From positions 56,832 through 120,831 of the forward strand of contig NZ_JACHFJ010000010.1 in NCBI RefSeq assembly GCF_014201825.1: a stretch of 64,000 nucleotides of DNA. Direction: 5' to 3'. A program made the position numbers and the translations under genes. This document shows positions 46,729-63,149 of this stretch, one piece after another; position 1 is the stretch's first letter, and each line of letters starts with the position of its first letter. A model generated the notes under the pieces. The model saw only the letters and a program-made list of their open reading frames with translations, was not told the origin of the DNA and searched no databases. Origin of the DNA: Acidocella aromatica. Its GTDB lineage: Bacteria > Pseudomonadota > Alphaproteobacteria > Acetobacterales > Acetobacteraceae.

Positions 46729-47007
46729 ATGAGCATCACCGGCACCACACAGACAACCGATGAAGCCGAACTCGCCTGCCTGATCGTCGAGACCCTGAAC
46801 CTGGACGTGGCGGCGGATAGCATCGACCCCGAAACCCCTATCTATGGCGAGGGGCTGGGACTGGACTCTATCGACATGCTGGAGATCGCCCTCGTTGTGT
46901 CGCAGCGCTACGGCGTCAAACTGCGCGCGGACGATGAAAACAATGTCCAGATCTTCAAATCCCTGCGCAGCCTCAACCGCTTCATCCAGGACCACCGGGG
47001 CGCGTAA
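46729..47007 (+). CDS. Acyl carrier protein of aryl-polyene cluster
   Basis: A 92-residue acyl carrier protein. Ser47 in GLGLDSIDMLE is the phosphopantetheine site. It would carry the growing aryl-polyene chain. Gene order after it (COG4648-type membrane protein, ligase, dehydratase) copies the front of aryl-polyene clusters. Only one ACP gene is visible here, whereas E. coli-type clusters have two. GGAG lies about 10 bases upstream. Confidence 0.9.
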   Translation: MSITGTTQTTDEAELACLIVETLNLDVAADSIDPETPIYGEGLGLDSIDMLEIALVVSQRYGVKLRADDENNVQIFKSLRSLNRFIQDHRGA

Positions 47008-47574
47008 ATGCCGCCCCAGCCCGCCGCCCGCCCGCCTGCCCTGCCGTTACTGGCGATCATCGCCGTTCCCGTTCTGTTTCATCTCACCATCGTCTGGACC
47101 TCATCCACCCCGCTCACGCTGCGGCTTAACCCGGGGGCGCTGGCCAAGCTCGGCTTTGTCTCGGCGGCGGCGGTGATGCATTGGGGGCTGTATGCCAGCC
47201 TGCTCGCCACATTCGGGCTAACGCTGCGCCGCGGCCATGAGCCGCTCATCACCGGCATGGCGCGCCGCCTGCATGGCGATATCGCGGCCGAGCTGGTCAC
47301 CTACACCCGCAACGTCACCATCGCCTGGACGATGTTCTTCGCGATGCAGCTCGCGCTCTCGATTGGCCTGTTCTGCTTTGCCCCGCTGGTGGTGTGGTCG
47401 TTCTTCGTCAATGTCCTCGACATCCCGCTGGTGGTGACAATGTTCGCGGCAGAATACGCCATCAGGCTGCGCTGCTTGCGCAACCCGCCCCGGCATTCCC
47501 TGTCCATGATCTTCAACATGGTCGCCGATTCCGTGCGCGAGGCGCGGGAGCGCCCGGCCGGGCCTAGAAGCTGA
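47008..47574 (+). CDS. ACP-associated integral membrane protein (COG4648-like)
   Basis: A 188-residue protein with about four membrane helices (residues 10-30, 45-70, 100-125, 130-155). It begins at the base after the ACP stop and ends in a TGATG overlap with the ligase. Aryl-polyene clusters carry a membrane protein of this size between the ACP and the ligase; its exact job is unclear, perhaps anchoring the soluble enzymes at the membrane. Confidence 0.65.
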   Translation: MPPQPAARPPALPLLAIIAVPVLFHLTIVWTSSTPLTLRLNPGALAKLGFVSAAAVMHWGLYASLLATFGLTLRRGHEPLITGMARRLHGDIAAELVTYTRNVTIAWTMFFAMQLALSIGLFCFAPLVVWSFFVNVLDIPLVVTMFAAEYAIRLRCLRNPPRHSLSMIFNMVADSVREARERPAGPRS

Positions 47575-48899
47575 TGAATACACCAACGGCGCATGTTTAT
47601 TCCGTAACCTGCCACGCGGCGGGGGATGTCATCGCCCGGCGCGGCGGGCAGACGCTCGATGCCGCGCAATTCCATCGCGATGCGGCTTCCCTGGCGGCGC
47701 TGCTGCCGGAGCGGCGGTACATCATCAATCTGTGCACTGACCGTTACCACTTCATGGTCGGGTTCGCCGCCGCGCTGATGCGGGGGCAGACCAGCCTGAT
47801 GCCCACCGCCAACGTGCCCGAGGCGTTGCGCGCCCTGGCCGAGGACTACCCGGACCTCTACGCCCTGACCGATGTGGGCGACGCGGCGGTGCCCAGCTTC
47901 GCCTACCCGGCTGATCTCTCTGGGGCGGCATCCGCCCTGCCCGCCATCCCCGGGGCGCAGCCAGCCTCCATCCAGTTCACCTCGGGCTCCACCGGCAAGC
48001 CTAAGCCCGTGCCCAAATCCTGGTCCGTGCTGGTGCATAGCGCCCGTACCGCCGGGGCGCGGCTGGATGCCCCCGCCCTGCGCGGCGCCACCATCATCGG
48101 CACCGTGCCGCACCAACACAGCTACGGGCTGGAATCCATCGTCCTGCTCGCCCTCCAGCACGGCTTCGCGGTGGAAGCCTCCAGCCCGCTCTACCCGGCG
48201 GATGTCCGCGACGCATTGGAGCGCACCCCGCGCCCACGCATTCTGGTGACAACGCCTGTGCATCTGCGCGCTTTGGTGGCGGAGCCCGAGGGCATGCCGC
48301 CGGTGGACCTCATCCTCTCGGCCACCGCGCCGCTACCCGAGCCCCTCGCCCATGCCGCCGAAGCCTGTTTCGGCGCGCCACTTGTTGAGATCTATGGCTG
48401 CACCGAGGCCGGACAAGCAGCCTCCCGCCGCACCACGCAAGAGACCGACTGGCATCTCTTCGACGGCATCGAGCTGCGCCAGGACGGAACCGGCAACTGG
48501 GCCAGCGGCGCGCCCGTGGAAGGCATCGCGCCATTGCAGGACGTGATCGAGCTGACCGGGCCGCGCCATTTCCGGCTGGGGGCGCGGGCGGCGGAGCTGG
48601 TGAACATCGTGGGCAAGCGCAGCTCGCTGCCCTATCTCAACAGCCAGCTCCTCTCCATTCCGGGCGTGCAGGACGGCACCTTTTTGCTCGACGATACCAC
48701 CCCCCTCCCGGTGCAGCGGCTGATGGCCGTGGCGGTGGCCCCCACGCTCACGCAGGAGGCCATTCTGCACGCCTTGCGCGAGCGCATCGACCCCACCTTC
48801 CTCCCCCGCCCTCTGGCGGTGGTGAAATCCCTGCCCCGCAACGCCATGGGCAAGCTGCCGCGCGCCGATCTGCTGCGCCTGCTCGGCCGCGCGCCATGA
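47574..48899 (+). CDS. Acyl-AMP ligase (aryl-polyene starter activation)
   Basis: A 441-residue member of the adenylate-forming family. It has the P-loop TSGSTGKPKPVPKSW (about residues 135-149), EIYGCTEAGQAAS and the late Lys in RNAMGKLPRADL. It is shorter than CoA ligases, as are aryl-polyene acyl-ACP ligases. It likely loads a hydroxybenzoate starter on the ACP. TGATG with the previous gene, ATGA with the next. Confidence 0.85.
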   Translation: MNTPTAHVYSVTCHAAGDVIARRGGQTLDAAQFHRDAASLAALLPERRYIINLCTDRYHFMVGFAAALMRGQTSLMPTANVPEALRALAEDYPDLYALTDVGDAAVPSFAYPADLSGAASALPAIPGAQPASIQFTSGSTGKPKPVPKSWSVLVHSARTAGARLDAPALRGATIIGTVPHQHSYGLESIVLLALQHGFAVEASSPLYPADVRDALERTPRPRILVTTPVHLRALVAEPEGMPPVDLILSATAPLPEPLAHAAEACFGAPLVEIYGCTEAGQAASRRTTQETDWHLFDGIELRQDGTGNWASGAPVEGIAPLQDVIELTGPRHFRLGARAAELVNIVGKRSSLPYLNSQLLSIPGVQDGTFLLDDTTPLPVQRLMAVAVAPTLTQEAILHALRERIDPTFLPRPLAVVKSLPRNAMGKLPRADLLRLLGRAP

Positions 48900-62190: not shown

Positions 62191-62192
62191 AC

Positions 62193-63149
62193 TCAAGCCT
62201 CCGGGAGGTGGCAAGCCTCGATCTCGAGCAGCAAATCGGTCCGGCAGATATCGGCACGCAGGTGCAGAATTTCGGCGGACGCGCCGAATAGTTTCCGCAC
62301 CGCGCGCTCCACGCCCTCCCAATAGGCGGGGTCGCGCAGATAGGTCTTCACCGCCCACTTGCCGGGCTGGCCCAGATGCCCCGCCGCCTCGGCCAATACG
62401 CGCAGATTCTCCATCGTCTCCGCAAGCTGTGCCTGCACGTCACCATGATGGCGCGTCTCATGCCCAACAATGCTGGCCGTGCCGGAGATGAACAGGTTCG
62501 GACCGTGAGCGGAAGCGCGTGAGAAGCTCGGACTGGTGGGACCGTAAATCGGCGGGTATTCATAGGCGCTGATCTGACGGGGGTTTTCGATGGCCCTTGC
62601 GGCCTCGCGTGCCGCGAGGAAATAGATCACCGACACGCCGTTCTCGCCCCCCAGACAACTCGCGGCGGGAGGAACGGGCTGATTCAGCCGGGCCATGAAG
62701 GCGCGGTGGCGGCCAGTATTGAAGCGCCTGTAGCGTTCCACGCCCTGTTCATCCCCGGTGATCGCGGTCAGATAGTTCCAAAACCGGATCGGCTCCTTGA
62801 AGCCAGTCCGATCCAGGAAATCAAAAACATATCGATAGCTGCGTTCCGTCGCGTCCTCTAACGGCGTGATTGCATCCTCCTCAAGCACCAGCGCGCCGAA
62901 GGAGATATCCCCGCTATAAGCCCCCGACACCGGCCCGACCTGGAGATAGGTGACCGGCGTGTCAGAGGTCCAAACCTCAAACGACCCGGCATCCGGTGCC
63001 ACGGGGTACAGAGGCGCCGAGATAAACGGGCAGGCGGGAGGCAGACTTTGGGGACGCGGCGCCCGATAGCCAATAACGCCGAGAATCCGGTCCTCGCCTT
63101 GCGTAGTCGCCAGGCGATCAACATTGAACCCATAACACAGTTTCAGCAC
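62193..63149 (-). CDS. Chorismatase (XanB2/FkbO/Hyg5 family)
   Basis: A 318-residue YjgF-like hydrolase. Diagnostic segments are RFWNYLTAITGDEQGVERYRRFN near the middle and SAYEYPPIYGPTSPSFSRAS, which belong to the FkbO/Hyg5/XanB2 chorismatase family. The catalytic Glu is expected in the C-terminal LLLEIEACHLP. XanB2 converts chorismate to 3- and 4-hydroxybenzoate; FkbO gives a dihydroxycyclohexadiene acid. In a pigment cluster a hydroxybenzoate product is likely. GTG 63149 has AGGAG upstream. Convergent with the antiporter gene. Confidence 0.8.
   Translation of the reverse strand: MLKLCYGFNVDRLATTQGEDRILGVIGYRAPRPQSLPPACPFISAPLYPVAPDAGSFEVWTSDTPVTYLQVGPVSGAYSGDISFGALVLEEDAITPLEDATERSYRYVFDFLDRTGFKEPIRFWNYLTAITGDEQGVERYRRFNTGRHRAFMARLNQPVPPAASCLGGENGVSVIYFLAAREAARAIENPRQISAYEYPPIYGPTSPSFSRASAHGPNLFISGTASIVGHETRHHGDVQAQLAETMENLRVLAEAAGHLGQPGKWAVKTYLRDPAYWEGVERAVRKLFGASAEILHLRADICRTDLLLEIEACHLPEA

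What the first reader, a model, noticed from the sequence alone, without database searches (positions are those of the whole stretch)
46729..63149. Xanthomonadin-like aryl-polyene cluster in an apparent acetic-acid-bacterium relative
The order ACP, membrane protein, acyl-AMP ligase, dehydratase, acyltransferase, LolA, MMPL, KS, chain-length factor, dehydratase, ketoreductase, with glycosyltransferase, halogenase-like, methyltransferase and chorismatase genes beside it, reads as a complete pigment pathway. It differs from the E. coli-type ape cluster by one ACP rather than two, a separate glycosyltransferase, no recognisable thioesterase or third ketosynthase, and two extra core genes.
Basis: partly seen in the sequence, partly recalled or inferred. 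Interest (0 to 1): 0.75.

Follow-up and report, generated by a model that had tools for sequence, protein, structure and literature searches.

The report
Pigment cluster with extra lipid-type enzyme
An acid-loving relative of acetic acid bacteria carries a full set of genes predicted to make a yellow aryl-polyene membrane pigment, with two extra enzyme genes, kept at the same spot in many relatives' clusters, that likely release the pigment and fix it to a membrane lipid.

Summary
The cluster is real, intact and correctly read. Thirteen abutting or overlapping genes run from ACP to ketoreductase (46729-58010), followed by glycosyltransferase, halogenase, methyltransferase, Na+/H+ antiporter and chorismatase. 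KS and chain-length factor match the solved aryl-polyene pair ApeO/ApeC best; chorismatase, halogenase and single ACP place it with xanthomonadin/arcuflavin-type clusters. Aryl-polyene clusters in Acetobacteraceae are already published. The new part is two extra genes between the MMPL exporter and KS. One (52979-53677) is a serine alpha/beta-hydrolase, triad invariant in 20 of 20. The other, x (53677-54870), has no Pfam family; its model and a remote profile match point to a permuted papain-like (Lnb_N/TseH-like) cysteine enzyme, with His55 and Asn220-Cys221 invariant in 65 of 65 rows. In 30 named loci found by x it follows MMPL in 25 of 26 testable and precedes KS in 28 of 29. It occurs in 51 of 397 family genomes but, of 299 drawn across the phylum (56 with this KS), only in the window's own. 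Relatives of this fold move or cut acyl groups on lipids, so the pair probably serves the release-and-anchoring step. That function is inferred, not shown.

The parts
46729..47007 (+). acyl carrier protein
   Evidence: Pfam PP-binding; NCBIfam PRK09184 over cut-off
47008..47574 (+). membrane protein, 3 hydrophobic segments (position of ApeG/ArcU)
   Evidence: no family at E 0.01; hydropathy
47574..48899 (+). AMP-forming aryl-acid ligase (ApeH/ArcT position)
   Evidence: Pfam AMP-binding over cut-off
48896..49183 (+). dehydratase 1 (FabA/FabZ-like, short)
   Evidence: Pfam FabA over cut-off
49180..50082 (+). LpxL-like acyltransferase
   Evidence: Pfam Lip_A_acyltrans over cut-off
50084..50665 (+). 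LolA-like periplasmic carrier (start chosen at the signal-like MRCPLL)
   Evidence: Pfam LolA_3 over cut-off; NCBIfam flexirubin LolA2 match under its cut-off
50655..52982 (+). MMPL/RND-type exporter (ApeM/ArcP position)
   Evidence: Pfam MMPL over cut-off
52979..53677 (+). extra gene 1 ('hyd'): serine alpha/beta-hydrolase with esterase-like model; Ser93, Asp176, His201 invariant
   Evidence: Pfam over cut-off for the longer ORF 52838-53677; alignment of 20; model pLDDT 90.8 and fold matches
53677..54870 (+). extra gene 2 ('x'): 397-aa predicted permuted papain-like (Lnb_N/TseH-like) cysteine enzyme, His55/Cys221
54867..56060 (+). ketosynthase (ApeO-like)
   Evidence: NCBIfam PRK09185 over cut-off; best PDB 6qsp_A, 7f28_B
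56060..56860 (+). half-length chain-length factor (ApeC-like)
   Evidence: Pfam Ketoacyl-synt_2; only PDB matches 7f28_A, 6qsp_B
56857..57294 (+). dehydratase 2 (ApeP position)
   Evidence: no Pfam or NCBIfam family at E 0.01; only PDB match 6qsr_B, E 1.1e-4
57291..58010 (+). ketoreductase (FabG-like, ApeQ role)
   Evidence: Pfam/NCBIfam
57991..58701 (-). family 2 glycosyltransferase
   Evidence: Pfam Glycos_transf_2 over cut-off
58712..60130 (-). flavin-dependent halogenase (start uncertain); WxWxIP motif present
   Evidence: Pfam Trp_halogenase; best PDB matches halogenases 3e1t, 5buk, 8zop, 7fco; motif
60123..60893 (+). UbiE-like methyltransferase (start chosen from the translation)
   Evidence: Pfam Ubie_methyltran
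60898..62190 (+). Na+/H+ (CPA2-type) antiporter (same kind as ArcG)
   Evidence: Pfam Na_H_Exchanger; PMC3949708
62193..63149 (-). chorismatase, Hyg5-side, predicted 3-hydroxybenzoate synthase
   Evidence: Pfam FkbO_Hyg5-like_N; alignment to 5ag3 and FkbO

Best explanation
This is an aryl-polyene gene cluster of the xanthomonadin/arcuflavin kind that is predicted to make a halogenated, methylated aryl-polyene lipid, and its two extra genes likely encode the enzymes that take the finished polyene off its carrier protein and fix it to a membrane lipid. Predicted steps: the chorismatase makes 3-hydroxybenzoate; the ligase loads it on the ACP; KS/CLF extend it with malonyl units while KR and the two dehydratases make each double bond; halogenase and methyltransferase dress the ring. 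The serine hydrolase would act as thioesterase or esterase. The cysteine enzyme x, which has no signal-like N-terminus and so is probably cytosolic, would form an acyl-cysteine intermediate at Cys221 (base His55) and pass an acyl group to a lipid acceptor, working with the LpxL-like acyltransferase and the glycosyltransferase. MMPL and LolA would then carry the pigment lipid to the outer membrane. Shown: gene content, order, coupling, conservation, invariant residues. Predicted by model: the folds. Inferred: every reaction, most of all that of the two extra enzymes.
Against: Foldseek alone found no significant PDB match for x (best E 0.57); x fails Pfam's Lnb_N cut-off; the best profile probability is only 48%, and other groupings gave P 0.0018 and 0.11. 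Most aryl-polyene clusters lack x: 55 of 56 KS-bearing genomes in the phylum draws and 44 of 71 in the family draw, so anchoring can be done without it. In 13 of 27 genomes with both, x is not within 15 kb of KS on the same contig (my reading), and 10 of 16 fetched outlying loci show x without the core genes. hyd is missing beside x in 4 of 26 testable loci. PMC8253772 (passage) says that the aryl-polyene lipid of X. doucetiae has since been solved by others, so the anchor is not wholly unknown. No pigment, activity or expression was seen.
Confidence: 0.55

Rival explanations
1. An ordinary xanthomonadin-type cluster in which the two extra genes are dispensable repair or proofreading enzymes (removing stalled or wrong acyl groups from the ACP), as proposed for ApeK in E. 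coli.
For: ApeK deletion only lowers pigment and proofreading was proposed (PMC8253772, passages); most clusters lack x; hyd is missing beside x in 4 of 26 loci.
Against: x is kept in one slot across families with an invariant dyad; proofreading would not call for two unrelated hydrolases in one place.
Confidence: 0.25
2. x is a phospholipase or lipid deacylase that prepares the acceptor (a lyso-lipid) rather than moving the polyene itself. (This is a variant of the anchoring reading, so its odds overlap with the best explanation.)
For: TseH and Tox-Act1, permuted relatives, showed phospholipase activity (PMC12994826, passages); the best fold match is TseH.
Against: No lipid or structure data here; x has no signal-like N-terminus or hydrophobic segment, which fits either reading.
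Confidence: 0.3
3. x is a passenger with an unrelated role (cell-wall amidase or peptidase) that happens to sit in the cluster.
For: Unlinked copies occur beside unrelated genes such as luciferase-like monooxygenase, GST and amidase.
Against: In the 200-genome draw 26 of the 28 other genomes with x also have the aryl-polyene KS; labelled in-slot copies form one side of a branch, 83/85; coupling by overlapping codons.
Confidence: 0.1
4. The cluster makes a different product, such as a dialkylresorcinol-polyene ester (arcuflavin- or flexirubin-like).
For: Arcuflavin clusters share chorismatase, halogenase, antiporter and GT (PMC3949708, passages).
Against: No DarA/DarB-like gene showed among the cluster genes scanned; the rest of the genome was not searched for them.
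Confidence: 0.1

Closest known systems
Arcuflavin (arc) clusters of Azoarcus sp. BH72
   Same: Block ACP-hypothetical-ligase-dehydratase-acyltransferase-LolA-exporter in the same order; chorismatase, halogenase, GT, methyltransferase, Na+/H+ antiporter, reductase (PMC3949708 Table 1, passage, partly cut)
   Different: arc is split over two loci and has an MltA-interacting protein and a polysaccharide deacetylase. 'hydrolase' and 'DUF' do not occur in its text, but several arc genes are listed as hypothetical, so an unlabelled relative of hyd or x is not excluded. Azoarcus adds a dialkylresorcinol
Xanthomonadin clusters of Xanthomonas and the Lysobacter yellow locus
   Same: CLF like the N-terminal half of known CLFs beside KS, XanB2-type chorismatase, halogenase in Xanthomonas, single ACP (PMC3691225, PMC8253772, passages)
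   Different: No releasing enzyme identified in Lysobacter. Not compared gene by gene here, so absence of hyd and x is not shown
E. coli CFT073 ape cluster
   Same: KS/CLF, KR, two dehydratases, ligase, ACP, acyltransferase, LolA, MMPL, methyltransferase (PMC8253772 Table 1, passage)
   Different: Here one ACP, separate GT, no ApeK-like thioesterase and no ApeR in the cluster, chorismatase and halogenase added, hyd and x at the ApeN position
Lnb_N/DUF4105 and TseH permuted NlpC/P60 enzymes (for x)
   Same: His-then-Cys order, GH...L and NC motifs in register, fold match
   Different: x fails the Pfam Lnb_N cut-off, has no signal-like N-terminus or membrane segment, has a long C-terminal helical part, and sits in a pigment operon

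Membership tests
Aryl-polyene (APE) biosynthetic cluster | ApeO/ApeC-type KS with half-length CLF | tested here: met
   Best PDB matches 6qsp, 7f28 for both; PRK09185 over cut-off
Aryl-polyene (APE) biosynthetic cluster | ACP, AMP ligase, KR and two dehydratases in the same operon | tested here: met
   dehydratase 2 rests on one PDB match
Aryl-polyene (APE) biosynthetic cluster | Dedicated LolA and MMPL export genes | tested here: met
Aryl-polyene (APE) biosynthetic cluster | Yellow polyene product | not testable with these tools
   Needs culture and mass spectrometry
Xanthomonadin/arcuflavin subtype | XanB2/Hyg5-side chorismatase supplying 3-HBA | tested here: met
   Gly and Cys of Hyg5 aligned, FkbO differs; subfamily residues from PMC7170507, passage. 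The third residue and XanB2 itself were not compared; product untested
Xanthomonadin/arcuflavin subtype | Flavin-dependent halogenase | tested here: met
   Best PDB matches are halogenases; WxWxIP motif; activity untested
Xanthomonadin/arcuflavin subtype | Single ACP | tested here: met
   One ACP among the cluster genes
E. coli-type ape cluster | Second ACP, ApeK thioesterase and third KS (ApeR) in the cluster | tested here: not met
   None among the cluster genes 46729-63149 scanned
E. coli-type ape cluster | ApeN (DUF3261) after the exporter | tested here: inconclusive
   No PF11659 hit in the genome, but no control genome rang either
Pfam Lnb_N (DUF4105), for x | Pfam gathering score | tested here: not met
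   Window protein no hit; three of four homologs tested hit below cut-off, E 0.032-0.23
Permuted NlpC/P60 superfamily, for x | His strand before Cys-headed helix, invariant dyad | tested here: met
Permuted NlpC/P60 superfamily, for x | Acyl transfer or lipid hydrolysis | not testable with these tools
   Needs enzyme assays

The most novel reading that the evidence does not exclude
Alphaproteobacterial aryl-polyene clusters have recruited a cytosolic thiol acyltransferase of the permuted papain (LRAT/Lnb/TseH) fold as the enzyme that lifts the finished polyene off its carrier protein and hands it directly to a membrane lipid: a new kind of chain release and anchoring for type II polyketide synthases.
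Probability: 0.27. Interest if true: 0.75.

Novelty: new variant of a known kind. Interest (0 to 1): 0.48.

Why it matters
[quoted passage not shown] A cluster that keeps a candidate releasing hydrolase and a lipid-acyl type cysteine enzyme inside the operon, also in a named non-pathogen such as Acidocella aquatica NBRC 112502 (L062), gives a short list of two genes with which to test that step. The cluster itself is no surprise: aryl-polyene clusters in 19 of 43 acidophilic and 28 of 96 acetous Acetobacteraceae type strains are in print (PMC8776678, passages).

Tried and rejected
Foldseek search of the x model in the PDB and in viral models: no significant match. PDB sequence search with the x profile: one hit at E 0.8, taken as chance. 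In the VIA-align list only TseH stood out. DUF3261 (ApeN) search in the genome: no hit, control silent, so inconclusive. Ten neighbours of unlinked x copies gave no common theme beyond two luciferase-like and two amidase genes. tRNA and Rfam scans of the window: nothing. Promoter/terminator scan of 46000-63400: no more sites than in shuffles. The idea that one ACP and a separate GT are novel was rejected. A search for papers holding at least two of 'aryl polyene', DUF4105, Lnb, LRAT, 'permuted NlpC' gave 3 papers, none with 'aryl polyene'; the library lacks most subscription papers.

hhalign first gave a weak result with one over-long Lnb_N row (P 0.047). I then dropped that row (L144, 19 of 20 kept), used the more diverse x alignment as well and a looser setting, and ran three target groupings: P 0.0018, 0.11 and 0.00019 with the diverse alignment, 0.013, 0.19 and 0.0018 with A1; controls with one side reversed 0.057 to 0.77. 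The 0.00019 is therefore a chosen best, not a single planned test.
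Full report
What is there. The window lies in a 2.88 Mb draft genome. The closest named relatives of its x gene are in Acidocella assemblies (89% in L049, 73% in L050), so the host is an Acidocella-like acidophilic member of the Acetobacteraceae. From 46729 to 58010 thirteen genes run on the plus strand with +1 to -11 bases between them by their likely starts (the -74 printed there for LolA is the long ORF, the likely start is 50084, and the CLF is taken to start at 56060): ACP, membrane protein, AMP ligase, dehydratase 1, LpxL-like acyltransferase, LolA, MMPL, hyd, x, KS, CLF, dehydratase 2, KR. 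Beside them lie a glycosyltransferase (minus), halogenase (minus), methyltransferase, Na+/H+ antiporter and chorismatase (minus).

Which pathway. Among solved structures KS matches 6qsp_A and then 7f28_B best, the CLF matches only 7f28_A and 6qsp_B, and dehydratase 2 only 6qsr_B. That 6qsp and 7f28 are the ApeO/ApeC pairs of Xenorhabdus and Acinetobacter, and 6qsr an aryl-polyene dehydratase, is recalled; the listings give generic names. NCBIfam PRK09185 (KS) and PRK09184 (ACP) are passed. The chorismatase is closest to 5ag3 (recalled as Hyg5) and shares its Gly and Cys where FkbO has Ala; PMC7170507 (passage) names such Gly and Cys residues, with a third Gly that I did not place, as typical of the 3-HBA-forming Hyg5 subfamily. 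The halogenase is closest to solved halogenases and has the WxWxIP motif (its diagnostic value is recalled). The set matches the arcuflavin clusters down to the antiporter (PMC3949708).

What is already known. PMC8776678 (passages) reports aryl-polyene clusters in 19 of 43 acidophilic and 28 of 96 acetous type strains, with a probable halogenase and hypothetical genes. My own count by KS is 71 of 200 family genomes at E up to 1e-60 and 56 of 299 across the phylum, the window's included in both.

Where x is found. A genome-contig scan with the x alignment gave 30 named loci, among them Acidocella, Asaia astilbis, Rhodovastum and Acidithiobacillus; two of the loci (L071, L078) come from one assembly. 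These loci were found by x, so counts are of its context: MMPL just upstream in 25 of 26 loci with room (not in L067), hyd in 22 of 26, KS just downstream in 28 of 29 (not in L074), GT and halogenase in 17 of 18 with 5.5 kb, and with 9 kb methyltransferase in 8, chorismatase in 6 and antiporter in 4 of 15. x occurs in 51 of 397 family genomes, 7 of 289 class genomes (6 besides the window's) and 1 of 299 phylum genomes, the window's. Of the six in other alphaproteobacterial families five have x next to MMPL; KS follows in four, the fifth ends at a contig edge; hyd was seen in two. In 200 family genomes x and KS occur as 27 both, 2 x only, 44 KS only, 127 neither, Fisher P 3.5e-12, 9e-12 without the window's genome, no correction for kinship. 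Against a strict link: by my reading only 14 of those 27 have both within about 15 kb; of 16 outlying loci fetched, 6 have x beside the cluster and 10 show x without the core genes, some on short contigs, one with a halogenase match and one with an ACP match nearby. Three Acetobacteraceae clusters without x in the slot show MMPL directly before KS (L014, L015, L017; two of these genomes carry x elsewhere), so hyd and x look like an insertion there. In the tree of 67 rows the 25 labelled in-slot copies form one side of a branch against 8 labelled others (83/85 support; 34 rows unlabelled).

How it likely works. Relatives of the permuted NlpC/P60 group act on acyl groups of lipids: LRAT and Lnb transfer them, TseH and Tox-Act1 showed phospholipase activity (PMC12994826, passages), and YiiX holds a probable fatty acid (PMC3142127, passages). 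In E. coli the anchoring step is assigned to ApeD and ApeJ, with ApeK perhaps helping release; the anchor there was not known, though that of X. doucetiae had been solved by others (PMC8253772, passages). In Lysobacter the releasing thioesterase is 'unknown' (PMC3691225, passage). Two hydrolase-type enzymes built into the operon, one of a lipid-acyl fold, make release and anchoring the most economical role. This is inference: I put about 0.95 on an aryl-polyene cluster, about 0.8 on the permuted papain-like fold of x, about 0.55 on a role of the pair in release or anchoring, and 0.27 on x moving the polyene itself.

Verdict. A well-read finding; an already described kind of cluster in a family where it is already known, carrying a conserved extra enzyme pair whose fold points to a partly open step of the pathway. 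New variant of a known kind.

Noticed in passing
L051; P0071: An Acidithiobacillus MAG (L051) holds the cluster from ACP to halogenase, x included, with a weaker chorismatase match (39%; methyltransferase and antiporter not detected), and x also occurs in Acidithiobacillus sp. AMEEHan (P0071, longest contig 2.55 Mb). In the x tree they group with P0033 (100/97) beside the window and L049 (100/99), which suggests transfer across classes between acidophiles.
   Followed up: partly
window genus g1, other genomes: x is patchy in the genus: 4 of 14 congeneric genomes searched, the window's included, have it, which suggests gain or frequent loss.
   Followed up: no
L080:8621-10027: In G157 an unlinked x lies beside a match to the cluster's ACP (8621-8872), while its KS is 0.5 Mb away; an x with its own carrier would fit an acyl-handling role.
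   Followed up: no
G088:C1: One genome has two KS matches (one partial) and two x copies about 5.4 Mb apart on one contig, each pair within about 8 kb.
   Followed up: no
L072: In Asaia astilbis the ligase and dehydratase 2 matches each come in two overlapping pieces, which may mean frame changes or assembly errors; not examined.
   Followed up: no
window 222-4533: Penicillin-binding protein (transpeptidase), FtsW/RodA-type and Asp/Glu racemase genes in a row, apparently a cell-shape operon.
   Followed up: no
window 41345-45489: A full-length AMP-ligase gene and a LonB-type AAA protease gene lie just upstream of the pigment cluster.
   Followed up: no
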